A DNA stretch of 64,000 nucleotides, taken from IMG/VR virus record IMGVR_UViG_3300042381_000848, positions 1 through 64,000 of that record; one strand, written 5' to 3'. The translations under genes were made by a program, and so were the position numbers. The DNA comes from a virus. The notes under the pieces were generated by a model. It saw only the letters and a program-made list of their open reading frames with translations. It made no database searches and had not been told where the DNA came from. Positions 20,395 to 54,469 of the stretch are shown here, in pieces. The number at the start of each line of letters is the position of its first letter. Within the stretch, counting starts at the first letter, position 1.

Positions 20395-22515
20395 TTAATT
20401 ACCATATTTGTCTATAGTAGGAAACCAAAAACCGTCGACGGTTGCTAAATCTCCTTTAGACCTTTTTACTGCTGCCTGTAAACAAGCTAAAAAACTAGAT
20501 CCGGTTATATTAAAAGTTTTTTTATTAGGACTCCTTAGTTCTATTGGCTCCATTGCCATTTGTTTCAGTGAAGGTTCCTTTCCGGCTAGCAATATTTCTA
20601 CCTTCATTTTTTTTCCACCATCTGTCCAACCTGATCCAACACCTCGTACTATTACAAAATCTTTTACCTCACTTATGCCAACGAGTATCGATCCATATAC
20701 ATTAGCCATTAAATTATACACTTTAAGCATTAATGTTCCATCATCACGAAGATGTAAAAAAGCTTTCGCATCTGGCATCCAATCTCTACTTATACCAATT
20801 TCGCGATCAATATACCAAACTTTTAATTTTGCATCCCATCGTAATTTTGCTTTTAATTCTTTTGCAACATTTTCAATACCTCTTCGATATGGTTTATCCG
20901 TTGTTACTTTTAATGATTTATTCGGAGTTGTTGTTGTAGTTTTAGCAGGTTCTTTTTTTGGTGTTACTGTAGGTTTAGGTGCAGTCTTAACAGCGGGTGT
21001 TGTTGATTTTACTGCCGGAGTTGTTGATTTAGGTACTTCTTTTTTTATAGGTTGATTTACTGTTACTGTGTTAGCCGCTTCATAATCAAAGCCAGATAAA
21101 TCTTGCTCTAGAAGTATCGATTTTAAAGAAAATACTGATTCCGTTTTTAATGGTGCTGTTAATTTTTCGATTAACTGAGGTAATATTTCATCAGTATCTC
21201 CAAGTTTATAACCTTTATTTAATGCACGTATTACTGCTTTTGACTTATCGCCCCATTTACCATCAATTGGTTTGTTCAAAGAAGCCCATGTTTTAACAGC
21301 TGGTACGTCTTTAAATGTAGGTACTACTTTTTGCATAATCAATTGTTGAAATGCTTCTGCTACCCAATTTATATCAGTCAAATTTGTGTTACCTATCAAT
21401 TGTTGTTTACGTATTTTTTGCTCTAATTTAACACCTGGATTTTTAGGATCATCATATTGACTAGTATATGTTAAAACTACATCACCGGTTAGTTGATTTG
21501 CATCTTGTTCTTTACCACTAAAAAATGTGTCTAAATCAGTCGTTATTGGTTGTTTATCATTGATTTGTTTTACTAAACGATCATATTGTTCTTTTGTTAT
21601 TCGCCGGAATTTTGTATAGCCTTTATATTTTGTATCTAAAGGCGTTGTTTCATCAATGAATTCGAATTCTGTTAAATCTCGAAACATTTCTTTTTCAAAT
21701 TGAAGCCACTCCGGTGTTTTATCAACATACCGTGCATTTGACCATAATCCATTGATTTCTGAAACTACAACATCATTAGCAGTAGTATGCTGTTTTATAT
21801 CAGTTTTTGGATCAAATGTATCTTTTAGTTTAAATAATAGTATTGATCCGATTCTAGCCTGAACAAATGTATCGCCTGGTTTAAATTTAGATTCTGCAGT
21901 TTTTTCTTTCGTGTCTGATGAACTACCACCTCCGTTGTCTTTTTTAACAACTACTATCTTCTCGTCTCCGCTAGGTACGTCAGCAATTGTATTATTAAGT
22001 ATGTCATTGATTTGTTTGATTAATGAAGCACCTGTAAAATTATCTATAAATTTATCCGAAGCTGAAGTATTTATAACCGAAACAAAATCACTTACTTTGA
22101 TAACATCACTACTACCAACTTTACCTGATGACTTAGGTGGTGTTTTAAAGTAATCATCAATGTCTTGCCATTCTTGCTTTCCTTTATCAACATTTACTAG
22201 TTTTCGTTTGGGATAAATTAATACATCAGTTACCAGACGACGTTCTGAACCTTGTTTCCGATCATCACCTATTACATAATACCAATCGCCATTTGCAAAT
22301 TTAGATGCAGGGCCATATTGTGTATTTTTAGGCGATGTTAAAACATACATGATATCTTGTTCAAAATTTGGCGGAGTTTCCTCATCACGAGTTGCTTTAA
22401 ACTTGATACGAAATACACCTGCCATTAAATCTGCCGCTTTTGCTATTATAGCATTAGGTGACTTTTTTAATATATAATTTACATCTTCTGTTAATAGTTT
22501 TTTTAAACTGATCAT
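20395..22515 (-). CDS. Large protein with capsid-targeting-like leader and internal cleavage-like site
   Basis: 706 aa, no family recognised. It starts MISLKKLLTE|DVNYI, matching the leader shared by other proteins here and the gp21 (L/I)xE rule. A second copy of the motif lies inside: SLKSILLE|QDLSG, with the Glu at residue 470. It is followed by a Pro/Thr/Lys linker with short repeats (STTPAVK, about residues 490-540), so the protein may be cut into two domains. Residues about 420-445 (LNKPIDGKWGDKSKAVIRAL) resemble a peptidoglycan-binding fold. The C-terminal domain (YRRGIENVAKELKAKLRWDA...) is well structured. Late box 19 nt upstream. Confidence 0.7.
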   Translation of the reverse strand: MISLKKLLTEDVNYILKKSPNAIIAKAADLMAGVFRIKFKATRDEETPPNFEQDIMYVLTSPKNTQYGPASKFANGDWYYVIGDDRKQGSERRLVTDVLIYPKRKLVNVDKGKQEWQDIDDYFKTPPKSSGKVGSSDVIKVSDFVSVINTSASDKFIDNFTGASLIKQINDILNNTIADVPSGDEKIVVVKKDNGGGSSSDTKEKTAESKFKPGDTFVQARIGSILLFKLKDTFDPKTDIKQHTTANDVVVSEINGLWSNARYVDKTPEWLQFEKEMFRDLTEFEFIDETTPLDTKYKGYTKFRRITKEQYDRLVKQINDKQPITTDLDTFFSGKEQDANQLTGDVVLTYTSQYDDPKNPGVKLEQKIRKQQLIGNTNLTDINWVAEAFQQLIMQKVVPTFKDVPAVKTWASLNKPIDGKWGDKSKAVIRALNKGYKLGDTDEILPQLIEKLTAPLKTESVFSLKSILLEQDLSGFDYEAANTVTVNQPIKKEVPKSTTPAVKSTTPAVKTAPKPTVTPKKEPAKTTTTTPNKSLKVTTDKPYRRGIENVAKELKAKLRWDAKLKVWYIDREIGISRDWMPDAKAFLHLRDDGTLMLKVYNLMANVYGSILVGISEVKDFVIVRGVGSGWTDGGKKMKVEILLAGKEPSLKQMAMEPIELRSPNKKTFNITGSSFLACLQAAVKRSKGDLATVDGFWFPTIDKYGN

Positions 22516-22534
22516 TTTTTAACCTTTATATATA

Positions 22535-22542
22535 ATAAATAT
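22535..22542 (-). promoter_or_regulatory. Late box ATATTTAT
   Basis: 19 nt before the start of the 706-aa protein gene and touching the stop of the kinase-like gene. Confidence 0.5.
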
Positions 22543-23087
22543 CACCAATCTACTAATACGAGCTTGTTATTCCACAACATCATGTTCGATGAACTAAAAT
22601 CTAAATCTAAATCAAAATCGGCAATACCTAATTTGTCTACATCTCTTTGCAATGCTCGAATAAAATTAACTAGTTTAACATCCATATTACGGGCTCCATC
22701 TGCATCTAAAAAATCAAATATTGAAACTTCACCTCCTTCTGATCTAGCAAATTGTTTGAATTGATCTGTGAATGCATCAATATTCATACGATCTGAATCT
22801 GGTAATATTTCTGCATTTGCCATTATATACAATTGTTCTCGATCACTAATATAATATACCGGTATAAAACATGTAAATTCAGCTGACCGATTTACAATAA
22901 TTGTAGCAACTTCAAATTCATCGCGTTCAGTGGTAATTTTAAAAACTTTATCTTCTCCATCAATCTCATAGACACGGCCATTATCACCTCCACCGATTAA
23001 ACGAAATTGTTTGTTTTTTATTTTATCTAACAATCTAGTTTTTTCTGAGTCAGATAATTCTCGTAAAAGTTGTTTTAATCGTATCAT
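22542..23087 (-). CDS. Short kinase-fold protein with capsid-targeting-like leader
   Basis: 181 aa. After the leader MIRLKQLLRE|LSDSE comes a protein-kinase/APH-like N-lobe: glycine loop IGGGDNGRVYEI (31-42) and Lys50 in DKVFKIT. The C-terminal end DLDFSSSN followed by LVLVDW matches the catalytic loop (D163, N168) and metal-binding Asp (D180) of aminoglycoside/RIO-type kinases. The chain stops right after that Asp, so the normal helical C-lobe is missing. Overlaps the upstream gene by four bases. I infer a small kinase or pseudokinase delivered with the DNA; substrate unknown. Confidence 0.7.
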   Translation of the reverse strand: MIRLKQLLRELSDSEKTRLLDKIKNKQFRLIGGGDNGRVYEIDGEDKVFKITTERDEFEVATIIVNRSAEFTCFIPVYYISDREQLYIMANAEILPDSDRMNIDAFTDQFKQFARSEGGEVSIFDFLDADGARNMDVKLVNFIRALQRDVDKLGIADFDLDLDFSSSNMMLWNNKLVLVDW

Positions 23088-24712
23088 GCTATATTCTTAT
23101 CTAAATCTATTCTTATTAAAAAATTCATATCAACATCAGAACGTTTACGTATAGGTTGTGCTAATTTACCAATTGCCAATAATTGTCCGGCATCATCATA
23201 TAATCCAATTGTTGTGATATATGGTGCAAATGCACTACCGGTCACAAACGATTTAAATGTTTGATCATCATCTGCTGTTAATGATATATTAGATGACACA
23301 TTGTAATCGCCAGCTGCAACTTTTGCTAATACTCCAAATTCATATATTGTTTTAGTACTTCTATATGATGCAGTATACGGCAAATTTAATATGTTATTAA
23401 ATCTATAATCAGGTGTTGATATTGTAACAACGCCTTGTTTAGCAAACACATTTCCGATATGATTTGTTTGCATAAAAGTTCCGCCGACAGGACGATTAGC
23501 TAATCTACCAATTTCCGTTGCAGTTAATGCTCGATTAAAAATACGTATTTCATCTAAATTACCTGTCATATTTGCATTTGATTCCCAACCGCCAATATAT
23601 AATGGATCTGTATTATCAATACGAGCTGATGCTGTAAATGGTGAAAGTGTATCAATTAACAAGTTATTAGTAGTAGACATATCCAAATTACCATCTATCC
23701 AAATTTCCATGGAACTACCACTTTTTTGACATACTACATGCACATGTGCAGTAGCATCAACTTCTATTGTAGATGTTAACTGTGATTTGAATGCCGTACT
23801 GCCAGCAATTGAAAATACAATATAACTCGATGGACCTACTTCGATTTTAAATGGATATTGTGGAGTTAATGAACTTGAAGCTTTAGTCATAACCAATGTA
23901 GACTCACTTCCTGTATTTTCTGAAAATATAAAAAATGAAATTGCATAATTATGATTACGATCGTAATATCCATCAAGTTCTGTTTTTATATAACCGGTGC
24001 CATCAAACTGCGCAAGTAATCCATAATTCTCATTCGCATTATCTAGATAAGTTATGCCTGGAATAAAATTTATATTTGCATATTCATATGTAATTTTAGA
24101 TGTATCAAAATATTCATTGAATCCCTCATAAAACTTAACACCTGACACGATTGAACTAGTATTATATGCTGCATTATATAAATTTCCATATCTATCAGAA
24201 GAAATATACAATGGCGTATTACTAGAATATGAAGATGTTCCGTATGATGCAGATCCATACATACTACCACTAACATAACTTGCAGTCATTACAAATGATG
24301 CCGGTTTAATGCCTTCTCCTACGCATACTTGAGGAAATGATAAAATGGATGCCGACTGATATAAAAACTTCTTAGTCCTGTTTAAATCGGTAGGACCATA
24401 GGTTTTCATCGGTTCCGATTTATGTTTATAATATAAATGGTTGATAGAAAAATATGTAATAGTTTGCAATGATTCATCTACATTCTTTAAATCATTAAAT
24501 GTTAAACTAGTACCTAATGCCGGCAACGTATTAATATCAGAATAAACAGCTTGCAAAGGCAATGCACTAGATGTAACACTACCTGAAATAACTGTCCATG
24601 ATTTATATGTTTGAAATGGATTAACATTTACATCAGATGACTCAATCTTTTTAAAGACTGTTGGATATACACCTTTATATGTATCTTGATGTTGTATTTT
24701 TGATTCTGCCAT
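23084..24712 (-). CDS. Virion structural protein with LamG/concanavalin-like domain
   Basis: 542 aa, Ser/Tyr/Asn rich. Residues about 235-410 form a LamG-type jelly roll: LAQFDGTGYIKTELDGYY, HVHVVCQKSGSSMEIWIDGN, GNLDEIRIFNRALTATEIG. The last 90 residues (ITTIGLYDDAGQLLAIGKLA, then a basic stretch and LIRIDLD) are related to the C-terminus of the next upstream gene, suggesting a shared attachment or assembly module. Probably a carbohydrate-binding tail or baseplate decoration. A terminator/promoter hairpin precedes it. Confidence 0.72.
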   Translation of the reverse strand: MAESKIQHQDTYKGVYPTVFKKIESSDVNVNPFQTYKSWTVISGSVTSSALPLQAVYSDINTLPALGTSLTFNDLKNVDESLQTITYFSINHLYYKHKSEPMKTYGPTDLNRTKKFLYQSASILSFPQVCVGEGIKPASFVMTASYVSGSMYGSASYGTSSYSSNTPLYISSDRYGNLYNAAYNTSSIVSGVKFYEGFNEYFDTSKITYEYANINFIPGITYLDNANENYGLLAQFDGTGYIKTELDGYYDRNHNYAISFFIFSENTGSESTLVMTKASSSLTPQYPFKIEVGPSSYIVFSIAGSTAFKSQLTSTIEVDATAHVHVVCQKSGSSMEIWIDGNLDMSTTNNLLIDTLSPFTASARIDNTDPLYIGGWESNANMTGNLDEIRIFNRALTATEIGRLANRPVGGTFMQTNHIGNVFAKQGVVTISTPDYRFNNILNLPYTASYRSTKTIYEFGVLAKVAAGDYNVSSNISLTADDDQTFKSFVTGSAFAPYITTIGLYDDAGQLLAIGKLAQPIRKRSDVDMNFLIRIDLDKNIA

Positions 24713-24724
24713 GATTAGTAAAAA

Positions 24725-24750
24725 CCCGTTATACTTATAAATATAACGGG
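24725..24750 (-). terminator. Terminator whose loop and stem contain a late box
   Basis: Perfect 9-bp stem CCCGTTATA/TATAACGGG with loop CTTATAAA, followed on the minus strand by TTTTTACTAA. It ends the 24771-26072 transcript, while the embedded ATATTTAT (24737-24744) would start the next one. Confidence 0.75.
24737..24744 (-). promoter_or_regulatory. Late box ATATTTAT inside a terminator hairpin
   Basis: 24 nt before the LamG-protein start codon. It overlaps the loop and 3' arm of the preceding terminator. Confidence 0.5.
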
Positions 24751-24770
24751 CTCAAATTACTGTATATTTT

Positions 24771-26072: not shown

Positions 26073-26075
26073 ATA

Positions 26076-26726: not shown

Positions 26727-26746
26727 ATGTTTTAACCTTATTTCAT

Positions 26747-26754
26747 ATAAATAT
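26747..26754 (-). promoter_or_regulatory. Late box ATATTTAT
   Basis: 20 nt before the 26076-26726 gene. Confidence 0.55.
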
Positions 26755-26768
26755 GTATAGTATAAAAT

Positions 26769-40795: not shown

Positions 40796-41866
40796 ATGAA
40801 AAACATTTTAGCAGAAAATTTACTTCGATTTGGAGTAAAGAATATTAATCACGTTGATAGAGCAGTTATACAACATTTATCAGAAATTGCACCTGGTGGG
40901 TCATCAATATCTCCAGAAGCACAAGCACAAATAGATGCAATGATTGCTGCCACCATGGCGCCAGTTACGTCATTTATAAAAACAAATCCGATTACATTCA
41001 TAACTCCAGGCGATCCATTAACCGTTACAAGTGCAACGATAAGTTCAAATAAAGGAGACGTAAATGCAAATTATGATCTTAATGTACGATTGAATTCAAC
41101 ATTTACTCAAAATCCTATAGATTTATCACTTAAAGGAGTAGAAGGTGCGACGCTGCAATTAAAAATCGGCGGAGGTAACCAATGGGGTGCAATTGATAAA
41201 ATGAATGTTTATAAAGCTCTTATATATACATGGGGCGCCGCAGGTGCTAAGGCAGTTGGGCTTGACAAATATATGATAGCAAACCATCCTACTACAAAAC
41301 CATTGAATGATGCTGGTAAAAATCCATTAGATCTAATTGTTAGTTTACTTAACATAGTAGTTAATAAATGGAAGTCAGGAAAAATGGCTACTTCGGAATC
41401 TAAAATTTACGAAATTGCACCAGCTGGAGGTACAATATCTCCAGACGCACAAGCAAACATGGATAAATTAGTTGCCGAAACGCAAGGTATAGTTTCAAAA
41501 TATATTAATAGCTCATTGAAACTAGATTTAAAAGGCGGAGGACCGATTGCAGTTCTTAAGGCAATAGTAAGAGGTAGAGCAGCAGGTGGTATAGCAGTTG
41601 ACGTACAATGGAATATAAAAAATGAAGGTGTGTATTATAGTCATTCATTTCCTATATCTTCAAAAGACGGAGTTAAACCTGCAGGGTATTACGGACTTGA
41701 CGCAGCTGCCGGCAAAAGTTCTTTTGATACACAGTTTCCAAAATTCATAACACAGTATTTTCAAACCACCGGTGCTAATTATGAAGCATGTAAACAAGGT
41801 ATATGGAATGGAATTTTAGCAGTTGCAGACAAATATACTAAATCAGGTGTAGCAACTAAAGGTTAA
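40796..41866 (+). CDS. Putative internal head protein with two homologous domains, each after a protease-like site
   Basis: 356 aa on the plus strand, no known family. It begins MKNILAE|NLL. A first domain starts after QHLSE|IAPGG (Glu30) and a second, similar one after KIYE|IAPAGG (Glu206). Both share the pattern IAP-GG--ISP-AQA-(I/M)D. The second site has Y rather than L/I two residues before the Glu partner, so cutting is less certain. The layout suggests a polyprotein cut by gp21 into two related products. It has its own late box and terminator, as expected for an abundant virion protein. Confidence 0.72.
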   Translation: MKNILAENLLRFGVKNINHVDRAVIQHLSEIAPGGSSISPEAQAQIDAMIAATMAPVTSFIKTNPITFITPGDPLTVTSATISSNKGDVNANYDLNVRLNSTFTQNPIDLSLKGVEGATLQLKIGGGNQWGAIDKMNVYKALIYTWGAAGAKAVGLDKYMIANHPTTKPLNDAGKNPLDLIVSLLNIVVNKWKSGKMATSESKIYEIAPAGGTISPDAQANMDKLVAETQGIVSKYINSSLKLDLKGGGPIAVLKAIVRGRAAGGIAVDVQWNIKNEGVYYSHSFPISSKDGVKPAGYYGLDAAAGKSSFDTQFPKFITQYFQTTGANYEACKQGIWNGILAVADKYTKSGVATKG

Positions 41867-42479: not shown

Positions 42480-42923
42480 ATGATAAAATTAAAAAATTTA
42501 ATAACTGAATCGAATCATATGGATATGTCATATGATATAGGTCCTAGCTCTATCAATGGTAAAGGTGTAATTGCTATTAAAATGATTCCTGCAGGATGTA
42601 AGGGATTAGCACATATTCATTCCGGTGATTTTAACAAGTATGCATATAGTGACTTAGGATATTTTATTAATCATTCCGAAACACCTAATTGTGATATCAT
42701 ATCAACTAACAATCGCCGCTATATTCGAACATTGCAAGACTTACAACCCGACGAAGAACTTACATGTAATTATTGGAATGGGCCTAAAGACTTAGAACGA
42801 CCAGATGCATTCCAAAAACCAGAACATGATGATTATGGTTTACGAAAAAGTTCTGGATGGAATATTAAACAGCTAACAACCGTTTCAGAACCATATATTA
42901 AATACGTTTTAACTAGAAATTAA
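42480..42923 (+). CDS. SET-domain protein (lysine methyltransferase-like) with capsid-targeting-like leader
   Basis: 147 aa on the plus strand. Leader MIKLKNLITE|SNHMD. Then SET motifs: SSINGKGVIAIKMIPAG (G-x-G loop), LGYFINHSETPNCDI (NHS-x-x-PN) and DLQPDEELTCNYW (the ELTYDY-like block). These are the SAM- and substrate-binding motifs of SET methyltransferases; the fold is short but complete. SET proteins are rare in phages. With the leader, it may be packaged and injected to modify host proteins, which is an inference. Confidence 0.8.
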   Translation: MIKLKNLITESNHMDMSYDIGPSSINGKGVIAIKMIPAGCKGLAHIHSGDFNKYAYSDLGYFINHSETPNCDIISTNNRRYIRTLQDLQPDEELTCNYWNGPKDLERPDAFQKPEHDDYGLRKSSGWNIKQLTTVSEPYIKYVLTRN

Positions 42924-45708: not shown

Positions 45709-46509
45709 TTATTTATCATTTAAGATTTTCTTTAATTTTTTCTGATTGCGATGCATATCATATGACTTGGTAATCTGTTTAACATCTAAATCAAAATTGA
45801 TCATCAAGTTATCTAAAATATCAGCAATCAATTTTTGCTTTTCAGAAACCGTACGTTTCTTTTTTGAAAATGTATCAATAATATTGTTTAAGTGCACAAT
45901 AAATGTTCTAGGCAAATCTTTAAGAATACGTGACTGCTTAGTATATATTTCAGATTTATCGGTTTTTTCTGATAAAACTTTATATGTGATTAATGATGAT
46001 TCTGTTAATAAATCACCGTAACCCATTATCCATTCTGTTGGAGGTCCGGGAGGTGGAGGTGGTGGAGTACTTGATTCAGTACCACTATCTGTTGGTGCAC
46101 CCGATGCTGCCGGAGCGGCTTCTGCCGCCGCTTCGTCTTCAGCACCCATACCTTTAATGTCATCTAATGACAATTTCAATTCAATTGTATAATCTGTATT
46201 ACGACCGAAACCTGAATAAGGAACGATATCGATAATACCGTCTTGGCGTAATTTAGCTAATATTTCAGGAGTACAATTCAAATCTTTTCCAGTTCTACTT
46301 AAAAATTCTTGTATACCTATTTCAGAAGGTGAATATAAGATTCCTAAATGATTGGTACCTCGGGCATCAAATTTGCCTAAGAACTTTTGTTCTGCTGGAG
46401 TAAACGATGAACCTTGATCGGAACTAGGAGCATTATCTGTTTCTAGGTTTCCGGCTGCAGGAGCTCCTTGTTCTCGTAAACGCGACTTATATTGTACTAC
46501 TTTTTTCAT
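45709..46509 (-). CDS. Protein with capsid-targeting-like leader and poly-proline linker
   Basis: 266 aa. Start MKKVVQYKSRLRE|QGAPAAG, a variant of the shared leader with RLRE as cleavage site. Residues about 40-120 form a structured domain (TPAEQKFLGKFDARGTNHLG, then LAKLRQDGIIDIVPYSGFGR), followed by an Ala/Pro-rich linker with eight prolines, then helical C-terminus (DKSEIYTKQSRILKDLPRTF). No family recognised. Overlaps the Hc1-like gene by four bases. Confidence 0.62.
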   Translation of the reverse strand: MKKVVQYKSRLREQGAPAAGNLETDNAPSSDQGSSFTPAEQKFLGKFDARGTNHLGILYSPSEIGIQEFLSRTGKDLNCTPEILAKLRQDGIIDIVPYSGFGRNTDYTIELKLSLDDIKGMGAEDEAAAEAAPAASGAPTDSGTESSTPPPPPPGPPTEWIMGYGDLLTESSLITYKVLSEKTDKSEIYTKQSRILKDLPRTFIVHLNNIIDTFSKKKRTVSEKQKLIADILDNLMINFDLDVKQITKSYDMHRNQKKLKKILNDK

Positions 46510-46722: not shown

Positions 46723-46727
46723 CCGCT

Positions 46728-46919
46728 TTACTTAAAACGGTCCATAAATACGTGTATATTTTGATTGATTACAGTTAATTTCGTATAATCTGTTAATTCT
46801 AAAACAATATCTGATCCTACTTGATATATTTGTTGTATATGATCAACGTTAATAAATTTTAAAACAGTTTCTTTGTTTTTATCTGTAGTATTAATTGGTA
46901 TGAATCTTGCATTAGACAT
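46728..46919 (-). CDS. Small hypothetical protein
   Basis: 63 aa. FIPINTTDKNKETVLKFINV, then IVLELTDYTKLTVINQNIHV; strand-rich, resembling small FlbD/YgaU-like beta proteins only superficially. It ends where the Hc1-like gene's promoter begins and shares one base with the upstream gene. Confidence 0.55.
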   Translation of the reverse strand: MSNARFIPINTTDKNKETVLKFINVDHIQQIYQVGSDIVLELTDYTKLTVINQNIHVFMDRFK

Positions 46920-47503
46920 TAGTCACCTGTCCACATACCACCTCGCCAATCTTGATTTTTGCTAGGAGATGTTCCTCCGCTGAAATTTGAAGATGTCGTA
47001 GGATTTGAATCAACTAATTCATCATGGTTAATATCAATAACATGTGTCACTGACAAAATATGTGCAATTATATCTTTTGTTAAATTCTTAGTAGATGTTA
47101 AACCAGATTGTAATAATTTAATTATTTGATTGGTTTTTAACTTTGGTCCAACACTTGCTTGATACCAAGCTTCAGCCGGTAATTTGCTAGCATTTTGTTG
47201 AATAAAGTTTGCTAATGCCGCGGGATTGATATTATCAGGTATGTCAAAACGTTTCAAGTCAAGTCTATTAGTAATTACATCTGGTAATTGCATCCATTCC
47301 GTATCAGAATACTCATCAGCAAAATCCGGGCCCATATCACCATCAACAGACATCAATGCAGCTTTACGTACATCTAATGTAAGATTTTTCCAAATTTCGT
47401 TTTCATTATATTCTTTAAGAATTTTCTTGATTCTATTAGATTCTTCTTTAAATATTTTTCGGAAAGTTTCGCTGCTTTCTAAAAGTCGTTTAAATTGTGT
47501 CAT
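46919..47503 (-). CDS. Protein with capsid-targeting-like leader
   Basis: 194 aa. Starts MTQFKRLLE|SSETF, the short form of the leader (LLE site). The rest is mostly helical and acidic, with WKNLTLDVRKAALMSVDGDM then GPDFADEYSDTEWMQLPDVI; the end is Gly/Ser/Trp rich (GGTSPSKNQDWRGGMWTGD). No family recognised. Late box 20 nt upstream. Confidence 0.62.
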   Translation of the reverse strand: MTQFKRLLESSETFRKIFKEESNRIKKILKEYNENEIWKNLTLDVRKAALMSVDGDMGPDFADEYSDTEWMQLPDVITNRLDLKRFDIPDNINPAALANFIQQNASKLPAEAWYQASVGPKLKTNQIIKLLQSGLTSTKNLTKDIIAHILSVTHVIDINHDELVDSNPTTSSNFSGGTSPSKNQDWRGGMWTGD

Positions 47504-47523: not shown

Positions 47524-47531
47524 ATAAATAT
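47524..47531 (-). promoter_or_regulatory. Late box ATATTTAT
   Basis: 20 nt before the 46919-47503 gene. Confidence 0.55.
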
Positions 47532-47536
47532 ATGTA

Positions 47537-49552
47537 TCAACTTAAACGTGAACGTATTTCGCTTCCGATAGTGTTATAAATATCAGTATAAATATGTGCG
47601 TCTGTTTGATTTCCGATTGCAGTTGGTATAATAGTAACACCGTTTTTTGCAAAATATGAATAATATGTATCTACTGTTTGTTGACTTACTTTTACTAACG
47701 CACCGCCACGTGCCCAAGTAGCTTTTGGCCCATATGTGCCTTTAACTACAAAAAGCTTTGCATTTGGAAATTTAGCACGAAGTTGTTTAACTAATTCAGT
47801 TACAGTATTTGATGATGTTTTATATATACCATTAGTACCAATACAAATAACTATATTTTTAACTTCTGGATCTTTTGCGGTATAAGGTTTTACATGATTA
47901 TTTAATAATCCTTCTACAGTAATTCCACTTTTCCATAAACCAGGAGCTGCTGTTATTCCTGCAGATCTTGCAACATTTGGTGTTAATGAATCACCAATTG
48001 CAATGCTTTTACCTAATGGTTTATTAGTTGAAGTTAAATTGCTAGTTGCTGCTGTAGATGCTCCAACGCTACTTAAAATCCATCCAGCTTCGCGTCCTCT
48101 TCTAGATTTATTTGCAGATAATGCAGCAACGGCATTTGCAACTTGCTTAGAATCTCCGGTCTGTGCAGCATCTATAACTGTTTTAGGTATTCTACCGTAA
48201 TTATATGCAACGGACGTTAATGCAGCAATTGTTGCATTATTATATTTCGACGCAATCGAGCCTAATGATTTTTTAGTTAACGGAATAAATTCGGAATTTA
48301 ATCTTCGTTTCAAATCTCGTTCAGCATCTTCTTCTGTAATTGTTATATTTGGTTTTACTGCTCTATTATTAGATAATGTTACAATAGAACCGTCGGGTTT
48401 TGTAATAGTACTACTACCATGGCCGATACGCCAATTGTTAACATCCCACATTGGAGTAAGAATCATGCCTTCTTCTTTTCTAAGTATTGCAGCTGTCTGT
48501 GTAGCAATATCATCTGAAAAACTTGCTTTATAATCGCCAAATGCATTTACTGCACTAGATATAATATTTCCGAAATCTAATGATGATTTTGTTTCATCAT
48601 TTTTATCGAATATATTCTTCATAAAATCTGGCATTAATGAACCGAACATACCAGCCCATTTTGAAAATGCTCTCGCACCTGGTTTCAATATAGCACGTGC
48701 TGTATTTTCATCTATATATCCAGTAACAGGCATTTCATTAATTGTTTGAAATGTTTTTACAGCTTGAAGTGTCGAGTCTCCGAATGTTCCTGATTTAATT
48801 TCAGTAGCATCAATTGTATATTCTAAACTTGCTAAACGACGTTGTACAACTTGCAGATTAGGTGACTTATCTCCTTGTTTAAATGATTTAAGATCAGATG
48901 CTGCACCTTTTTGTTTTTTCTCATCATCAGTTTTATCTAAAATTTTAGGATCTATTTTAGGATCTATTTCTGATAAATATTTTAGCCATTGTTTTGCAAT
49001 TATTTGTTGTCCTTCTTCATTTAACAAGATTTTATTTTTTTGAAAAAATGTTTTATTGTCAGTTAATGTATAGGCATCAATATTAAAATCAGAAATTTGT
49101 TGAGTATTTACCCAATCTGCAATTTCGGGTGTATTTGCATATTTTACATGACCATATGGTGCAAATTCTTTGGTTGGTGGAGAAATTGTAATAAAATTGC
49201 CGCCATTATCTTCAATTGCATTAAACATGACTTTTAAAACTTCAATTGCAGATACTTTATCATTAGGCACGGTATTGCTAAACATCAATGAAACTACATT
49301 ATAGTTATTAGCAAGATTTGTTTGTAATAATGATAATAATTTAGTAATATCCCCTTCTGCTGTAGAAACAACATTCCCAGTAACTACACCTGAATTTAAA
49401 ATATCATATGCATAACTAAAACGAGAATGAGTATCGCCATCGCCTATAAATAAAACATTGAGTTTATCTTTTGGCTTAGATGTTGAATCGCTAGTTCTTT
49501 CTTTATCGAAATTAGTATCTTGTTCAAACAATAAATTTTGTAGTTGTATCAT
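47537..49552 (-). CDS. Multidomain cell-wall enzyme: SGNH - PG-binding - lysozyme - SGNH, with capsid-targeting-like leader
   Basis: 671 aa. After the leader MIQLQNLLFE|QDTNF come: an SGNH/GDSL-like domain (LNVLFIGDGDTHSRFSY, residues about 30-195); a PG_binding_1 domain (GDKSPNLQVVQRRLASLEYT, then FGDSTLQAVKTFQTINEMPV); a GH24 T4-type lysozyme domain (LRKEEGMILTPMWDVNNWRI with catalytic Glu, about residues 350-490); and a second SGNH hydrolase (SIAIGDSLTPNVARSAGITA, IVICIGTNGIYK). It could degrade peptidoglycan and deacetylate sugars. The leader suggests packaging rather than ordinary endolysin use; both remain possible. Confidence 0.82.
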   Translation of the reverse strand: MIQLQNLLFEQDTNFDKERTSDSTSKPKDKLNVLFIGDGDTHSRFSYAYDILNSGVVTGNVVSTAEGDITKLLSLLQTNLANNYNVVSLMFSNTVPNDKVSAIEVLKVMFNAIEDNGGNFITISPPTKEFAPYGHVKYANTPEIADWVNTQQISDFNIDAYTLTDNKTFFQKNKILLNEEGQQIIAKQWLKYLSEIDPKIDPKILDKTDDEKKQKGAASDLKSFKQGDKSPNLQVVQRRLASLEYTIDATEIKSGTFGDSTLQAVKTFQTINEMPVTGYIDENTARAILKPGARAFSKWAGMFGSLMPDFMKNIFDKNDETKSSLDFGNIISSAVNAFGDYKASFSDDIATQTAAILRKEEGMILTPMWDVNNWRIGHGSSTITKPDGSIVTLSNNRAVKPNITITEEDAERDLKRRLNSEFIPLTKKSLGSIASKYNNATIAALTSVAYNYGRIPKTVIDAAQTGDSKQVANAVAALSANKSRRGREAGWILSSVGASTAATSNLTSTNKPLGKSIAIGDSLTPNVARSAGITAAPGLWKSGITVEGLLNNHVKPYTAKDPEVKNIVICIGTNGIYKTSSNTVTELVKQLRAKFPNAKLFVVKGTYGPKATWARGGALVKVSQQTVDTYYSYFAKNGVTIIPTAIGNQTDAHIYTDIYNTIGSEIRSRLS

Positions 49553-49698: not shown

Positions 49699-49706
49699 GA
49701 TACTCC

Positions 49707-50210
49707 TTAAAAATAAGTTTGTTCAAAATATAATAATTCAAATTTGTTATTCGGATCTATTAACATAGCCGCATTTAATAAATCAGAATATTCAATTACA
49801 GATTCCGTTTGTCCGATACGATACTTTGTTAAGAAATCAAATGTATTGAGATCAGAAGTAAATAATTCTTTTGAATCTGCTGTGTATGATTCAAATAATG
49901 AATATTCTAATACATATGCTTTATTGATAACATCAACTAAATCTACAAATGATACATTTGGTTTAATAGATGGTAATAAAGGCATTACGTTCCAATCTAC
50001 CAAATACTTTTGTAGACCTTCAGCATGTTCTAATTCATTCGCAGCTTCTTGTTCAAAAAACTTAGCAGCCTTTAAATACCCAATACCTTGACACCAATTG
50101 GTTGCATTGCGATAAAAATAATGTGCTGTATATTCATCACCTAATCTACTAGTTAACCTCTTAACTGATGAATCTGCTAATGTTTTAGGCGTTTTAATCG
50201 TTATACTCAT
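49707..50210 (-). CDS. Ferritin-like protein
   Basis: 167 aa. LTSRLGDEYTAHYFYRNATN (E26), then FFEQEAANELEHAEGLQKYL with E59-x-x-H62, the ExxH of ferritin helix B; the second pair of helices has EYSLFESYTA (E102/E107) and YRIGQTESVIEYSDLL (Q134/E136). This is the four-helix ferritin layout with a plausible di-iron ferroxidase site. Phage ferritin-like proteins are uncommon; iron storage or protection of DNA from oxidants (Dps-like) are possible roles. Late box 19 nt upstream. Confidence 0.8.
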   Translation of the reverse strand: MSITIKTPKTLADSSVKRLTSRLGDEYTAHYFYRNATNWCQGIGYLKAAKFFEQEAANELEHAEGLQKYLVDWNVMPLLPSIKPNVSFVDLVDVINKAYVLEYSLFESYTADSKELFTSDLNTFDFLTKYRIGQTESVIEYSDLLNAAMLIDPNNKFELLYFEQTYF

Positions 50211-50229
50211 TGTTATCTTTCTTTTTTAT

Positions 50230-50237
50230 ATAAATAT
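50230..50237 (-). promoter_or_regulatory. Late box ATATTTAT
   Basis: 19 nt before the ferritin-like gene. Confidence 0.55.
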
Positions 50238-50250
50238 ATGAACAGTAAAA

Positions 50251-50272
50251 AAGCCCCTAATTAAAGGGGCTT
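50251..50272 (-). terminator. Rho-independent terminator
   Basis: Stem AAGCCCC/GGGGCTT with loop TAATTAAA and, on the minus strand, the tail TTTTTACTG. It ends the 50289-50519 transcript. Confidence 0.82.
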
Positions 50273-50288
50273 AAAAACTATTTAATAC

Positions 50289-50519
50289 TTAATCAAATGC
50301 ATTTTCCATTCTTTGTGTCATTGGATTAACTTCTTGCTGAACATATTTAATAATGTTTTCGCTTTGAGTTACAATTGTTCCATGTTCGCCATGTGTTACA
50401 ACTCCGCCATTTGGACTTGTTTTTAACTTCAAGATACCGTTGCCTAAATTAGTCACTTCTATTTTCTCAGATTCTAATTGGTGAGTGTTTGTACTCGGTT
50501 CTAAAACTACTTTTTGCAT
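50289..50519 (-). CDS. Small hypothetical protein
   Basis: 76 aa. KIEVTNLGNGILKLKTSPNG then THGEHGTIVTQSENIIKYVQ; strand-rich. No family recognised. It ends just before a terminator. Confidence 0.58.
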   Translation of the reverse strand: MQKVVLEPSTNTHQLESEKIEVTNLGNGILKLKTSPNGGVVTHGEHGTIVTQSENIIKYVQQEVNPMTQRMENAFD

Positions 50520-50583
50520 ATACTATAAATTAAAGGTTACATATTAATAATAAAAAAACTATTTTGGAATTCCAACCAAACTA

Positions 50584-51348
50584 TTAACTTTGTGCAGTTA
50601 ATAATTCAAAATATTGGTCTTTGCTTAAAGACACCATCTGACCCCTAGGATCAACGTCTTGTGTTAATTCAACTAACAAAATATCGCCTTGACGCTTCAA
50701 TTCTTTGATAAATGGAACTAAATTCTCATGCACGAAAAATGTTCGGGCAATTGCTTCTAACGGATCGTCACTATATTGGCGGTCTATCCAAAGCCAATGT
50801 TCATTATTTGTAGTAGTGCACCAACAACGCACTGCAAATATGTTGTTTTGTAAATTTAATTTGCGTCCATCTACTTGATGAGTTTCAAAAATTACATCAT
50901 ATTCGTGATATCCTAAAAATTTGCCGGATTTAGAAAATTGTTTGTGTCTAACTGGCCTTCCTGCTGTAGCAATACGGGTATGACCTAACTCCTTAATCAT
51001 ATCAGATACTCGGATACTACTAAATATAACAGATTTCCAAAACCCCCAAGGACATTCAAATGCTTCTCGATATGTATAAGGCTCAACCATATCGTAATTT
51101 TCTAGAAAAAAGTCTAATAAGCTACAAACTGAAGCAAGAGTTTCATCATCAAATGTCCTTTTTACTTCATCAATGAAATGTGACTCGAATCTAGCCTTAT
51201 TTGAGTATTTATTTTTCAAATATCGTAAAAATAAAAATTTACCTATTGAAACTTGCTTGCTACTCCACCTTTCAGCTGGGGCAATTATATCATTTTTGTC
51301 TGTATCGAAAAATAATTGAGGATAATTCTTAAAAAAATATACATTCAT
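50584..51348 (-). CDS. Hypothetical protein
   Basis: 254 aa from the ATG at 51348. An ATG at 51426 would add 26 residues but would run back through the upstream gene's end, so it is less likely. Sequence NVYFFKNYPQLFFDTDKNDI, KSVIFSSIRVSDMIKELGHT, HWLWIDRQYSDDPLEAIART; an alpha/beta protein with several Trp residues near the centre. Not recognised. Ends at the 50.58-kb gap. Confidence 0.6.
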   Translation of the reverse strand: MNVYFFKNYPQLFFDTDKNDIIAPAERWSSKQVSIGKFLFLRYLKNKYSNKARFESHFIDEVKRTFDDETLASVCSLLDFFLENYDMVEPYTYREAFECPWGFWKSVIFSSIRVSDMIKELGHTRIATAGRPVRHKQFSKSGKFLGYHEYDVIFETHQVDGRKLNLQNNIFAVRCWCTTTNNEHWLWIDRQYSDDPLEAIARTFFVHENLVPFIKELKRQGDILLVELTQDVDPRGQMVSLSKDQYFELLTAQS

Positions 51349-51358
51349 AGCTAAAAAA

Positions 51359-51586
51359 TTAAAGGTTACAATATACGTGATCTTGTTGTGACTTTCCGTC
51401 TTTGCTGGTATATGCCCAAATGCCATATTGTTCGCCAGAAATAAACTTGCCTTGCCAAGCTAAACGACCCGATGGCCAATATCCTGTAAATTTACCTGTT
51501 TTTGCATGGGGAGAATCAGAACTTCGTCCCGGCCATCCATATTCCAAAGCACGTTGTTGTGCTTGTCTTACTTCTAAATCCGTCAT
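51359..51586 (-). CDS. Small MORN-like protein
   Basis: 75 aa. TGKFTGYWPSGRLAWQGKFI then SGEQYGIWAYTSKDGK contains a Y-x-x-G-x-L-x-x-x-G-x-F pattern reminiscent of MORN repeats. Function unknown. The upstream promoter region is a hybrid (see the feature at 51610). Confidence 0.6.
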   Translation of the reverse strand: MTDLEVRQAQQRALEYGWPGRSSDSPHAKTGKFTGYWPSGRLAWQGKFISGEQYGIWAYTSKDGKSQQDHVYCNL

Positions 51587-51609
51587 TATCTCTTATTTTT
51601 AATTATACT

Positions 51610-51657
51610 ATAAATATAAGGAATAAATCAATATGATCCTAGCATTTTGGCAAAAAA
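51610..51657 (-). promoter_or_regulatory. Hybrid promoter: early-type upstream block with late box
   Basis: On the minus strand the spacer and upstream block (AAAATGCTAGGATCATATTG) match the early cassette of 55118 (AAAAGATTAGGATCCTATTG), but the -7 element TTATCTTTA is replaced by TTATATTTATA, the late box (51610-51617). The leader AATTAAAAATAAGAGAT before ATG is the early-type leader. 23 nt separate the box from the start codon at 51586. Confidence 0.6.
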
Positions 51658-51659
51658 GT

Positions 51660-51742
51660 TTCACAAAACAGTAAAAAAGTGCAACATTGCTGCTGCACTC
51701 TATACGTTTACCTCAAAACGTATTGCCTAAGGTAGCAGGCAT
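51660..51742 (-). ncRNA. Structured leader/trailer with three tandem hairpins ending in a terminator
   Basis: Minus strand, 3' of the 51744-52337 gene: stem 1 TGCCT/AGGCA (51724-51741), stem 2 ATACGTTT/AAACGTAT (51702-51723, loop TGAGGT), stem 3 AGTGCA/TGCACT (51678-51699) followed by TTTTTTACTG. Three perfect stems in 80 bases suggest a structured 3' UTR or small RNA ending in a terminator. No coding potential seen. Confidence 0.5.
51678..51699 (-). terminator. Terminator with conserved T-run tail
   Basis: Stem AGTGCA/TGCACT followed by TTTTTTACTG, the same tail as the terminators at 1719 and 50251. Confidence 0.7.
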
Positions 51743-51743
51743 T

Positions 51744-52337
51744 TTAAATGTTATCTTGCAATTCGTCAATTAAATCTGCGATTTTAACCAATTGTTTTAG
51801 TATTACACTTTTTTCTGAAGTTGGTACATCGGGATTAGTAGAAAGATCTTGCATTAAGCGGTCAACATGATCTTCAAGTTTCTCAACTATCTCAGAAACA
51901 TCTCCATTGGATTCTCTAGAAGATTTACCACCGCCATACATTTGTGAACTACGATCAAATTCTCGTTCTCCATATTCATTTACAGATTCTGATTTGATTG
52001 TGAATTTTGTATATTTAGTATTATCAGCATCACTAGGACTATTTAATTTAGTTGCTCCTGCCGCGGCATGTCCATATACTGTTCCATCTTTTTTTGTTAG
52101 ATGTGACTTTGCTCGAGCTTTATTAATATAATTACCATATTTTGTAGAATCATTATCCGCAGCAGCCGATTTCATTGATTCTTTTTCGTTACCATCGCCA
52201 TCTAAGTCTAAAAAATCCGGCTTAGCGCCTGAATTGGCTTCGTGTACTGCTATAGCATCCTTAAGGGTAGGCAAAGATCCATCTGCCTTACGATCCCACG
52301 CATAACCTTCTAAAAGTGCTTTTAATTTAATTGACAT
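51744..52337 (-). CDS. EF-hand-like protein with capsid-targeting-like leader
   Basis: 197 aa. Leader MSIKLKALLE|GYAWD. Residues about 40-55 carry DLDGDGNEKESMKSA, an EF-hand/dockerin-type calcium loop; similar short acidic loops occur in marine T4-like phages. The rest is polar and probably flexible (SAAADNDSTKYGNYINKARA, AAGATKLNSPSDADNTKYTK) with a helical end (EIVEKLEDHVDRLMQDLSTN). No family recognised. Followed by the three-hairpin trailer. Confidence 0.62.
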   Translation of the reverse strand: MSIKLKALLEGYAWDRKADGSLPTLKDAIAVHEANSGAKPDFLDLDGDGNEKESMKSAAADNDSTKYGNYINKARAKSHLTKKDGTVYGHAAAGATKLNSPSDADNTKYTKFTIKSESVNEYGEREFDRSSQMYGGGKSSRESNGDVSEIVEKLEDHVDRLMQDLSTNPDVPTSEKSVILKQLVKIADLIDELQDNI

Positions 52338-52359
52338 TTTATTTTTCCTTTGTTGTTTT

Positions 52360-52968
52360 TTATTTTATATCGGTTGATTCTAATAATGTATATGAAAATT
52401 TATTTCCATGTATTTTAGCCGCTTTTCTACATATCGACATAAATACATCAAAATCCTTTACACGTTTAAATACTTGACAGCCTTCACTCCAATTTTCAAC
52501 CCAAGTAGAATCTGTACCAGATTTGTGGATATTGATACCAAACATTCCAGTATCTTTAAGTACTTCATCAAACATCAAATCTTTATTACCATCTCTCCAA
52601 ACGGTAACATTACCCAATCGTTGACAAAGTGCATCATATTTACCTTGATGTTTATCAATAGCCCAAACACCTCTATATTGTCCTGGAACTAAACGTGCAA
52701 CACCTTTAGCATTATGATATTGTTGAACACCTTTCTTGCCTGGATCCGATGTTGCCATCCAGCAATAATATTGTAAAGCACCCTTTTCATCTTTAAAAGA
52801 CAAAGTAAGTGCATCATCAAAAACATTGGTTACTTTTTTATAGACTGCAGGAGCACAATTTCTTACGCCTACAATATTAACATCAAAGCCTTTGTTAGCA
52901 TCATCATTAAACCATTTATAGTTTTTTGATTCAACTGCCGCTTTGATTTGTTCTCTAGTATAGCTCAT
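52360..52968 (-). CDS. L,D-transpeptidase-like cell-wall protein
   Basis: 202 aa. Near the C-terminus, GINIHKSG followed by WSEGCQVFKR reproduces the H-x(14-17)-S-x-G-C arrangement of L,D-transpeptidase (YkuD) active sites, with Glu in place of the usual His before Gly-Cys. The N-terminal part contains a start VRNCAPAVYKKVTNV and LSFKDEKGALQYYCWM. It probably acts on peptidoglycan cross-links, either in lysis or in the host wall. Not a classical YkuD by length, so the family call is tentative. Late box 14 nt upstream. Confidence 0.6.
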   Translation of the reverse strand: MSYTREQIKAAVESKNYKWFNDDANKGFDVNIVGVRNCAPAVYKKVTNVFDDALTLSFKDEKGALQYYCWMATSDPGKKGVQQYHNAKGVARLVPGQYRGVWAIDKHQGKYDALCQRLGNVTVWRDGNKDLMFDEVLKDTGMFGINIHKSGTDSTWVENWSEGCQVFKRVKDFDVFMSICRKAAKIHGNKFSYTLLESTDIK

Positions 52969-52982
52969 ATTATTTCTTTAGA

Positions 52983-52990
52983 ATAAATAT
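52983..52990 (-). promoter_or_regulatory. Late box ATATTTAT
   Basis: 14 nt before the L,D-transpeptidase-like gene. Confidence 0.55.
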
Positions 52991-53017
52991 AGTACGTTTG
53001 TAATTACTAGAACGTTA

Positions 53018-53039
53018 GTGCGTCCTTACAGGTCCGCAC
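53018..53039. other. Hairpin after the 53063 gene
   Basis: GTGCG/CGCAC stem with an 11-12 base loop, 25 bases after the stop of the 53063 gene on the minus strand. No long T run follows, so it may be a structured 3' end rather than a strong terminator. Confidence 0.45.
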
Positions 53040-53062
53040 AGGCCATTTTCAACGCTGCACAT

Positions 53063-53584
53063 TTATGAAGGGCTCACACCTGTTGAATCTGCGTTGCTAC
53101 GACGAACCAACCACAATTCATTTCTACGCTGCATTGTCATGTATCCTGCGGAAGCAATTCGTGCCCAATTGTCCTTAACAAATGCAGCATATAAACGAGT
53201 CTTTTGATATTCTTTGTCGGAATCCGAATCAGCTCCACTTATGTTAACAGACTCAGGTGCATGATTTGCACAAAAATCTAGTATTGCTTCTCCGGCAGTA
53301 CGTATGAGACGCAAATAGTTGAGTTGTCCGACAGCACCACTTTTTGTATGCGATGTAGTGCGACCAGCAGTCAGTGCATTTGGATTACGGGTAGGCATTG
53401 TAAATGCAAAATACCATTCATTGTTTTCGCCATGTACCATTACGAATTCAATGTTTGTGGAATCGGCTGTAACGTTGCATTTCCATCGATCGGTTGATCC
53501 CATTGTTTGCCACGCAAATTGGGTGGCATAAGGTTGAACGGAGCCAAAGGTAATTTCCGTTAATATGTTGTGTAATTTAATCAT
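53063..53584 (-). CDS. Capsid-targeted paralogue A
   Basis: 173 aa. MIKLHNILTE|ITFGS, then a domain shared with the next gene: ATQFAW, EFVMVHGENNEWYFAFTMPT, GQLNYLRLIRTAGEAILDFC, APESVNISGADSDSDKEYQK, TRLYAAFVKDNWARIASAGY. The pattern -T--E-ILDF----P--V---G------KT-LY--------L--AGY is common in uncharacterised phage proteins. Here the (L/I)xE site sits right at the domain start. One-base overlap (TAATG) with the upstream paralogue gene. Confidence 0.7.
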   Translation of the reverse strand: MIKLHNILTEITFGSVQPYATQFAWQTMGSTDRWKCNVTADSTNIEFVMVHGENNEWYFAFTMPTRNPNALTAGRTTSHTKSGAVGQLNYLRLIRTAGEAILDFCANHAPESVNISGADSDSDKEYQKTRLYAAFVKDNWARIASAGYMTMQRRNELWLVRRSNADSTGVSPS

Positions 53585-54219
53585 TATTCTATTCCCGTTG
53601 CATCATATCGATTGCGTGACACTATGTATAGTTTTCCGTTACGATCGAGGATGCGATATCCAGCGGCTGCTAATTTGTCGGCATTGGCGTGAAGCAGACC
53701 GCGGTATATGCGAGTCTTTTGAAGATCCTTACCTGCTTCGGTGTCAAACCCGGTTACATCCACAGCTTCAGGTGCATATTGGCTGCAAAAGTCTAAAATT
53801 GCTTCCCCTGCTGTTTGCAGCACCCGCAAATAAGACAATTGGCCAGTGACATCACTTTTTGCGTGTGAAACCGTAAACCCATGTCCACCAAATCCTGGCA
53901 ATGCTATGACAAAGGAATATTCCTCTCCATCACGTGACCAATTGGATTCCATTGCAAACTCTACTAGTACGCTATCGCATTGCACCTGGGTATTATAGCC
54001 ATCGTGTTTGCTGCGCCACACAAACTGGGTCGCATATGGGGCAATGCTCCCCAAAGTAATTTCGGCTAGCGGTTCCTTGGCGGGAGTATTGTCATGGCCG
54101 CAGCGATGACACATGTATACATCTTTACCACCATCTGCAATCTTCCATGGCCATGAGCACTTATCACAGTGAATGCGATGCTTGGTAACCAATTCTAGCA
54201 AATGTTTTAGCCGTATCAT
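53584..54219 (-). CDS. Capsid-targeted paralogue B with inserted zinc ribbon
   Basis: 211 aa from ATG 54219, two bases after the upstream stop; the upstream ATG at 54255 would add 12 residues. MIRLKHLLE|LVTKH is followed by a zinc ribbon (HCDKCSWPWKIADGGKDVYM then CHRCGHDN, i.e. C-x2-C...C-x2-C), then PLAE|ITLGS and the same domain as paralogue A. So a zinc ribbon has been inserted between the leader and a second LxE site. If gp21 cuts at both, ribbon and domain would separate. Confidence 0.72.
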   Translation of the reverse strand: MIRLKHLLELVTKHRIHCDKCSWPWKIADGGKDVYMCHRCGHDNTPAKEPLAEITLGSIAPYATQFVWRSKHDGYNTQVQCDSVLVEFAMESNWSRDGEEYSFVIALPGFGGHGFTVSHAKSDVTGQLSYLRVLQTAGEAILDFCSQYAPEAVDVTGFDTEAGKDLQKTRIYRGLLHANADKLAAAGYRILDRNGKLYIVSRNRYDATGIE

Positions 54220-54220
54220 G

Positions 54221-54469
54221 TTATCCCCGACGAATGTCCGAATCACCATGCTCATATGGTATAGTAATTACATCACCCTCATTTTGACCGCCCTTAAGCT
54301 TAAATACATAGTCCTCATCCGCTGAATTGTATCCAACAAACAGTGCAGGTACCCAATCACCCCATTGATGATCATATACTTCATACGTTTTACCTTCGGT
54401 GAAATCGATTGATTGTGTTGCATCTTCCGTTAAGAATCGACGCCATTTTCTTAAAGAAAATTGTTCCAT
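54221..54469 (-). CDS. Small protein with capsid-targeting-like leader
   Basis: 82 aa. MEQFSLRKWRRFLTE|DATQS, a longer, more basic leader with an FLTE site. The rest (FTEGKTYEVYDHQWGDWVPA, FVGYNSADEDYVFKLKGGQN, EGDVITIPYEHGDSDIRRG) looks like a small SH3-like beta barrel. It heads the operon containing paralogues B and A, with a late box 17 nt upstream. Confidence 0.65.
   Translation of the reverse strand: MEQFSLRKWRRFLTEDATQSIDFTEGKTYEVYDHQWGDWVPALFVGYNSADEDYVFKLKGGQNEGDVITIPYEHGDSDIRRG

What the first reader, a model, noticed from the sequence alone, without database searches (positions are those of the whole stretch)
20395..54469. A shared capsid-targeting-like leader on at least eleven unrelated proteins
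Proteins starting at 22515, 23087, 42480, 47503, 49552, 52337, 53584, 54219 and 54469 (and, in variant form, 40796 and 46509) begin with a short basic/hydrophobic segment ending in (L/I)-x-E: examples MIRLKQLLRE, MISLKKLLTE, MIKLKNLITE, MIQLQNLLFE, MIKLHNILTE, MSIKLKALLE, MTQFKRLLE. After it the proteins share nothing: kinase-like, SET, lysozyme/SGNH, EF-hand-like, zinc-ribbon. In T4, internal head proteins and Alt carry a leader of this kind (MKTYQEFIAE), removed by gp21 after (I/L)xE, and this window encodes gp21. I infer a capsid-delivered effector set. The breadth of cargo, especially SET and kinase folds, seems undescribed to me, but I cannot search.
Basis: partly seen in the sequence, partly recalled or inferred. 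Interest (0 to 1): 0.9.

Follow-up and report, generated by a model that had tools for sequence, protein, structure and literature searches.

The report
Shared capsid-delivery tag on phage proteins
Uncultured T4-like phages carry the same ten-amino-acid tag, ending where the phage's own head protease probably cuts, on dozens of unrelated proteins, so the tag probably marks proteins that are packed into the virus head and may be delivered into the host cell.

Summary
The leader is real. A profile trained on other phages picks 6 of 88 window genes (scores 9.7-21.5; next best -4.8). 51744 and 40796 are supported by homologues or hybrid leaders; 46509 and 54469 are plausible, 47503 uncertain. Consensus: M-I-[KR]-L-K-x-[LI]-L-x-E, then nothing shared. 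I collected 293 leader genes in about 152 body families (ADP-ribosyltransferase, SET, kinase-like, RimK, Nudix, zeta-like, lysozyme). A second, longer leader occurs on homologous bodies. The conserved positions (2, 4, 5, 7, 8, 10) include the four reported to target (4, 7) and process (8, 10) the T4 IPIII capsid targeting sequence. gp21 is present, leader genes lie near gp21 in some phages, and several sit behind late-type promoters. Best reading: a capsid-targeting propeptide removed by gp21, used on far more cargo than in T4. Packaging, cleavage and delivery are not shown; virion proteomics is the decisive test.

The parts
22486..22515 (-). Leader MISLKKLLTE of ORF 20395-22515 (706 aa, unknown)
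   Evidence: profile score 17.6; late-type TATTTATT 18 nt before the ATG
23058..23087 (-). Leader MIRLKQLLRE of ORF 22542-23087 (181 aa, kinase-like)
   Evidence: score 21.5; 19-member family with this leader, alignments; AF2 body ordered, leader low confidence
40796..40885 (+). Second leader type, MKNILAENLLRFGVKNINHVDRAVIQHLSE (end inferred), of ORF 40796-41866 (356 aa, unknown)
   Evidence: class B leader list and A+B hybrids; late-type motif 36 nt before the ATG
42480..42509 (+). Leader MIKLKNLITE of ORF 42480-42923 (147 aa, SET domain)
   Evidence: score 18.8; Pfam SET 1.9e-9
46471..46509 (-). Possible divergent leader MKKVVQYKSRLRE of ORF 45709-46509 (266 aa)
   Evidence: homologues share a hydrophobic-x-E at the same junction, by eye; no profile support
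47477..47503 (-). Uncertain short-variant leader MTQFKRLLE of ORF 46919-47503 (194 aa)
   Evidence: short-variant regex; late-type motif; profile score -11.1; homologues start differently
49523..49552 (-). Leader MIQLQNLLFE of ORF 47537-49552 (671 aa; PG-binding, lysozyme, weak GDSL)
   Evidence: score 11.3; Pfam
52308..52337 (-). Leader MSIKLKALLE of ORF 51744-52337 (197 aa)
   Evidence: homologues with MIKLKSLLKE, MLKLKSLIKE, MIKLKSILNE; profile score -10.3 because out of register
53555..53584 (-). Leader MIKLHNILTE of ORF 53063-53584 (173 aa)
   Evidence: score 17.9; family alignment A3
54193..54219 (-). Leader MIRLKHLLE of the protein starting at 54219 (211 aa, ends 53584), with a Cys4 cassette between leader and body
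   Evidence: score 9.7 at in-frame Met 13 of the 223-aa ORF; alignment A3
54425..54469 (-). Possible divergent leader MEQFSLRKWRRFLTE of ORF 54221-54469
   Evidence: sequence; late-type motif; no profile support, no homologue
3014..3643 (-). gp21 prohead protease (Peptidase_S77)
   Evidence: E 2.2e-33
2596..3012 (-). Gene next to gp21; its family carries the canonical leader in some other phages

Best explanation
The leader is a capsid-targeting propeptide of the T4 CTS kind. Inferred steps: tagged proteins are made late; the hydrophobic residues of the leader (4, 7, 8) bind the prohead core; gp21 cuts after the Glu of (L/I)xE; the freed proteins stay in the head with the DNA and at least some are ejected into the next host. 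Shown: the leader is real, acts at the protein level, ends at the Glu, and sits on many unrelated bodies, in phages that encode gp21 in 17 of the 18 leader-bearing records where a T4-like capsid gene is held.
For: (1) Enrichment over N-terminal and internal-Met nulls. (2) IMG/VR scan: 87 of 88 examined matches at or within 26 codons of a gene start, 0 of 88 in frames under 45 aa, against 9 of 43 and 28 of 43 for the codon-permuted pattern and 12 of 80 and 61 of 80 in cellular genomes. (3) 293 leader ORFs (294 entries), 152 body families. (4) Between 30 families from related genomes, identity falls from 1.00 at E10 to 0.10 at residue 11 and stays at 0.04-0.10 (positions 1-10 were used in selection, 11 onward not). 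(5) Class A and class B leaders occur on homologous bodies. In HTVC008M and Melnitz a body seen elsewhere behind the leader follows another short stretch ending LKE or LQE. (6) Register: T4 IPIII needs its first 10 residues; targeting maps to 4 and 7, processing to 8 and 10 (PMC9026906, passages); these four are among the conserved positions here. (7) gp21 in 21 of 41 leader-bearing records over 18 kb against 3 of 25 control records over cut-off (4 at E 1e-3); 17 of 18 records with T4-like MCP also have gp21. (8) Leader genes (score 8 or more) within four genes of gp21 in 6 of 20 neighbourhoods, and the gp21-adjacent family bears the leader in other phages. (9) Late-type motif before 29 of 70 leader genes against 343 of 1445 others; early-type 0 of 70 against 14 of 1445. 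(10) AF2: low confidence over the leader, ordered body, in both models. (11) Cargo includes ART-PolyVal (E 1.3e-27); T4 Alt is a packaged ADP-ribosyltransferase (PMC9026906).
Against: No virion proteomics or cleavage data for any tagged protein. 20 of 41 leader-bearing records show no gp21 (they may be fragments). T4, Syn9, P-SSM2, HTVC008M and immuto have no strict DNA match, and 4 of 28 records (G018, G021, G023, G025) have no profile hit at score 8, so gp21 does not imply this leader. The A/B swaps do not fix the boundary at the Glu: the first ten residues had been trimmed, and untrimmed alignments of two of the pairs begin at residue 4 or 6 of the class A leader, because class B also ends in an LKxxLxE-like stretch. 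The inferred MCP site in this clade is V/I-x-E, the leader L-x-E. Late-motif enrichment is modest. A look-alike (MSLQKFFTE, 59666) sits in the early region. Neighbourhoods come from leader-selected records.
Confidence: 0.76

Rival explanations
1. The leader is a gp21-cleaved propeptide, but mainly for head assembly: tagged proteins are core or scaffold-like components that are degraded or retained, not effectors sent into the host.
For: The gp21-adjacent gene family bears the leader in some phages, and Pfam found only 40 families among the 115 tagged proteins scanned, most of them in one member each.
Against: Enzyme or toxin-like cargoes and patchy gene content, 104 of 152 families seen once, do not look like structural scaffold.
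Confidence: 0.1
2. The leader is a docking peptide for another site (tail, membrane, replication compartment) and the Glu is part of the binding motif, not a cut site.
For: No cleavage data; short amphipathic peptides can bind many partners; lysozyme cargo could belong to a tail; leader swaps do not place the boundary exactly at the Glu.
Against: Same length and register as the T4 CTS; conservation between families stops at the Glu; gp21 association.
Confidence: 0.1
3. The conserved start is a translation or RNA signal and the peptide is incidental.
For: It sits at start codons.
Against: Leu and Ile positions use many synonymous codons (Leu4 TTA, CTA, CTT, CTC, TTG; Ile2 ATT, ATA, ATC, one per family, part of the set chosen by a pattern that fixes some codons); two different leaders serve homologous bodies.
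Confidence: 0.02
4. Chance or composition artefact of AT-rich genes.
For: K, I, L and E are common residues in such genomes (general knowledge).
Against: Shuffles, internal-Met, permuted-pattern and cellular controls.
Confidence: 0.01

Closest known systems
T4 capsid targeting sequence (IPI, IPII, IPIII, Alt) and gp21
   Same: N-terminal, about 10 residues, ends (I/L)xE, shared by otherwise different proteins, hydrophobic positions 4, 7, 8 and Glu10 in the same register, phage encodes gp21. The T4 leader MKTYQEFIAE was found twice in T4.
   Different: Different consensus (MIKLKxLLxE); a second, longer form exists; up to 16 tagged genes in one record and about 152 body families across records, against four internal proteins in T4 (PMC9026906); packaging and cleavage unproven here.
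Phage P1 DarB capsid localisation signal and Dar proteins
   Same: N-terminal signal that directs an anti-restriction protein to the capsid (PMC9024508, passages).
   Different: One large protein in a different phage; no shared short consensus tested here.
phiKZ/SPN3US head-protein propeptides
   Same: Cut after Glu by a gp21 relative; gp53 and gp54 share an identical 15-residue N-terminus (PMC5694885, passages).
   Different: A-x-E in SPN3US; several propeptides longer than 100 residues.
Polyvalent proteins
   Same: Overlapping cargo (ART, lysozyme; a ParB-like case here is by eye) proposed to be packaged and injected (PMC5512222, passages).
   Different: There the domains are fused in one polypeptide; here cargo rides behind a short leader, mostly in smaller proteins.

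Membership tests
T4-type capsid targeting sequence | Short N-terminal segment (10-19 residues in T4 IPs) | tested here: met
   10 residues (9 in the short variant); class B is longer, about 27
T4-type capsid targeting sequence | Ends in the gp21 motif (I/L)-x-E | tested here: met
   E10 in 131 of 141 family representatives; position 8 L or I in 138 of 141 (selection favours it). Independent check: kinase family aligned by body, L8 invariant, E10 nearly so in 22
T4-type capsid targeting sequence | Hydrophobic targeting residues 4 and 7, processing residues 8 and 10 | tested here: met
   Positions 4, 7 and 8 hydrophobic in 141 of 141 (profile-selected); T4 mapping from PMC9026906
T4-type capsid targeting sequence | Shared by proteins with unrelated mature parts | tested here: met
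   152 body families; consensus of 115 sequences is MIKLKxxLxE and then almost nothing
T4-type capsid targeting sequence | Phage encodes gp21 | tested here: met
   Window; 25 of 25 related records, (found through gp21 or terminase). In the leader-selected set 21 of 41
T4-type capsid targeting sequence | Late expression with head genes | tested here: inconclusive
   Promoter motif only: 29 of 70 against 343 of 1445
T4-type capsid targeting sequence | Sequence homology to T4 MKTYQEFIAE | tested here: inconclusive
   Same register, little identity; strict pattern absent from T4
T4-type capsid targeting sequence | Sufficient for packaging; removed by gp21 | not testable with these tools
   Needs fusions and mass spectrometry

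The most novel reading that the evidence does not exclude
A general protein-delivery code in uncultured T4-like phages: a gene that gains a 10-residue leader becomes head cargo, so these phages carry large, fast-changing sets of injected effectors (ARTs, kinases, methyltransferases, nucleotidases, toxins) that can be read straight from sequence.
Probability: 0.53. Interest if true: 0.9.

Novelty: new variant of a known kind. Interest (0 to 1): 0.77.

Why it matters
Which phage proteins enter the host with the DNA is unknown for nearly all phages (general knowledge). If the leader is a CTS, it gives a sequence rule that lists candidate injected proteins in uncultured T4-like phages, including new effector and counter-defence candidates, and it can be tested in cultured phages that carry it (Microcystis phage Mel-JY01, Flavobacterium phage immuto).

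Tried and rejected
Not upheld: GDSL/SGNH and EF-hand as firm calls (Pfam below cut-off or absent). Pfam and PHROG gave no match for the kinase-like protein. Foldseek gave APH(2'') and PRPK kinases at E 2e-4 to 1e-3 with query TM 0.32-0.43, and VIA-align Z 8.8 over 124 residues at 3.9 A: kinase-like, family not fixed. The 53584 family has no PDB match at E 0.001 (best 3.4e-3). Tblastn in annotated phages: kinase-like protein none, SET one record, other tagged proteins none, 37 and 2 records. No paper found for Mel-JY01; no held paper contains the leader strings tried. My first Zn-ribbon pattern was wrong, corrected. One search stopped on a missing file; one search printed nothing because of a wrong regex and was rerun.

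Limits of the counts: G005, a near copy of G004, is and, as a source, 65; it was left out. One search's relatives also leave out the window and the two isolates. G000, G013 and G016 were left out of profile training; ends of some contigs (G003, G011, G012, G013, G014) were not fetched. 80 of 120 loci of the leader scan were classed and 80 of 118 of the cellular scan. Records for the gp21 tests were those over about 18 kb: 41 and 25 (G024, already counted, and one of 18,031 bases left out); the controls were not matched by phage type. Family counts use single-linkage blastp and can lump or split. A1 is 115 sequences picked by me from the 294 entries. One search's output was cut; I saw its head and tail.
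Full report
Setting. The window is most of a 65,022-base virus record of a T4-like phage. Its gp21 (3014-3643 minus, Peptidase_S77 E 2.2e-33) and large terminase are 52-56% identical to those of Flavobacterium phage immuto and Microcystis phage Mel-JY01. Related uncultured contigs are plentiful. I fetched 25 records, all holding gp21, in pieces, plus the two isolates.

The leader is real. With a broad regex, 92 of 2177 predicted N-termini match, against 42 of 10,229 internal methionines. With tighter forms the ratios are 56 of 2093 against 4 of 9841 (Glu at 10) and 13 of 2093 against 1 of 9841 (Glu at 9). A profile trained without the window picks 6 of its 88 genes, with a gap from 9.7 to -4.8 to the next gene; 4 of 28 records have no hit at score 8. 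The 52 strict seeds give M-I-[RK]-L-K-x-[LI]-L-x-E.

It is widespread, and phage-specific in these tests. Of 88 matches in 80 loci, 71 are the first start codon of an ORF of at least 45 aa, 87 lie at or within 26 codons of it, and none is in a short frame. The same codons permuted gave 43 matches in the whole collection, 28 of them in frames under 45 codons and 9 at or near gene starts.

It is a module. Across the loci I collected 294 entries (265 class A, 24 class B, 5 both), that is 293 ORFs, in 152 body families, 104 of them seen once. Aligning 115 gives the consensus MIKLKxxLxE and then almost nothing. Between 30 families from related genomes identity falls from 1.00 at residue 10 to 0.10 at residue 11. 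In the kinase-like family, aligned by the body, I2, L4 and L8 are invariant and K5 and E10 nearly so; residues 11-19 vary, and conservation resumes at 20. Class B leaders (MKNILAENMLRFGTKNLSE...LxE, about 27 residues) sit on bodies homologous to class A bodies: seven A/B rows, of which four join a class A protein to a plain class B protein over the body start. The exact boundary is not fixed by them: with the leader kept, alignments of two of these pairs run 5-7 residues back into it, because class B ends in a similar LKxxLxE-like stretch. In two cultured phages (HTVC008M, Melnitz) a P-loop body seen behind the leader elsewhere follows a different short stretch ending LKE or LQE. In the 54219 protein a Cys4 cassette sits between leader and body. 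AlphaFold2 gives low confidence over the leader and orders the body in both families tried (mean pLDDT of residues 1-10: 44 and 49).

The link to the prohead. Published work maps the T4 IPIII capsid targeting sequence to its first ten residues, with targeting at 4 and 7 and processing at 8 and 10 (PMC9026906, passages). The leader's conserved positions are 2, 4, 5, 7, 8 and 10. A review also says that T-even internal proteins are diverse behind one conserved CTS (PMC3012670, passages). gp21 is found in 21 of 41 leader-bearing records over 18 kb, against 3 of 25 control records over cut-off (4 at E 1e-3). Of 18 records with a T4-like major capsid protein, 17 have gp21; the other has its capsid gene 9.6 kb from the contig end. 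Leader genes at score 8 or more lie within four genes of gp21 in 6 of 20 neighbourhoods (G034, G046, G048, G055, G059, G063), with weaker scores of 4-5 in two more (G058, G062); these records were chosen for having the leader. The gene next to gp21 belongs to one family in 76 of 80 loci, and members of that family in other phages start MIKLKELLNE or MIKLKDLLKE; in the window's own clade its N-terminus is diverged, and in G033 the leader-bearing member is not gp21's immediate neighbour. A late-type motif (TATTTATA or TATTTATT) stands before 19 of 64 window genes outside the early region and 0 of 24 inside it. In relatives it stands before 29 of 70 leader genes and 343 of 1445 others.

Cargo. 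Matches among the 115 include ART-PolyVal, ADPrib_exo_Tox, RimK, Nudix, zeta toxin, exonuclease, SET, phosphoribosyltransferase, lysozyme, 5'-3' deoxyribonucleotidase and cytidyltransferase (the first 25 families of each library were shown). One member matched a portal-protein PHROG. In the window: kinase-like, SET, and PG-binding plus lysozyme. One record holds 16 tagged ORFs (G002: 13 A, 3 B).

What is not shown. No step of packaging, cleavage or delivery has been tested. About half of the leader-bearing records show no gp21, the capsid site in this clade is V/I-x-E rather than L-x-E, and several T4-like isolates lack this consensus. I therefore file it as working like, and probably being, a CTS variant. 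Literature: listings; passages. None that I saw described this leader, but the library holds open-access papers only and I read passages, not whole texts.

Noticed in passing
window 53584-54219 minus; L263:2312: A Cys4 cassette (CDKCSWPWK...CHRCGHDNTP) sits between leader and body; the same cassette follows the leader in L263, so it may be a second mobile module.
   Followed up: partly
window 45709-46509 minus: Homologues of this protein have variable N-termini of roughly 14-20 residues that all end hydrophobic-x-E before the body, as if another leader variant (by eye).
   Followed up: partly
window 55100-64000: Early-region genes share another upstream signal (CTTATCTTTA): 10 of 24 there, 1 of 64 elsewhere.
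   Followed up: partly
window 59666-59992 minus: Early-region gene starting MSLQKFFTEG looks like a leader but has the early-type upstream signal and no homologue here; possibly chance.
   Followed up: partly
G001 119023-126541 (L176, L177): Run of six class B leader genes on the plus strand, among them related bodies, like an expanding cassette array.
   Followed up: no
G023 17400 and window 10953: A nucleotidyltransferase-like gene carries a leader-like extension in G023 but not in the window, by eye.
   Followed up: no
immuto 109856 and 103366; Mel-JY01 60276, 62056: Cultured phages carry leader-like starts on a deoxyribonucleotidase, a kinase-like protein and two related unknown proteins.
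   Followed up: partly
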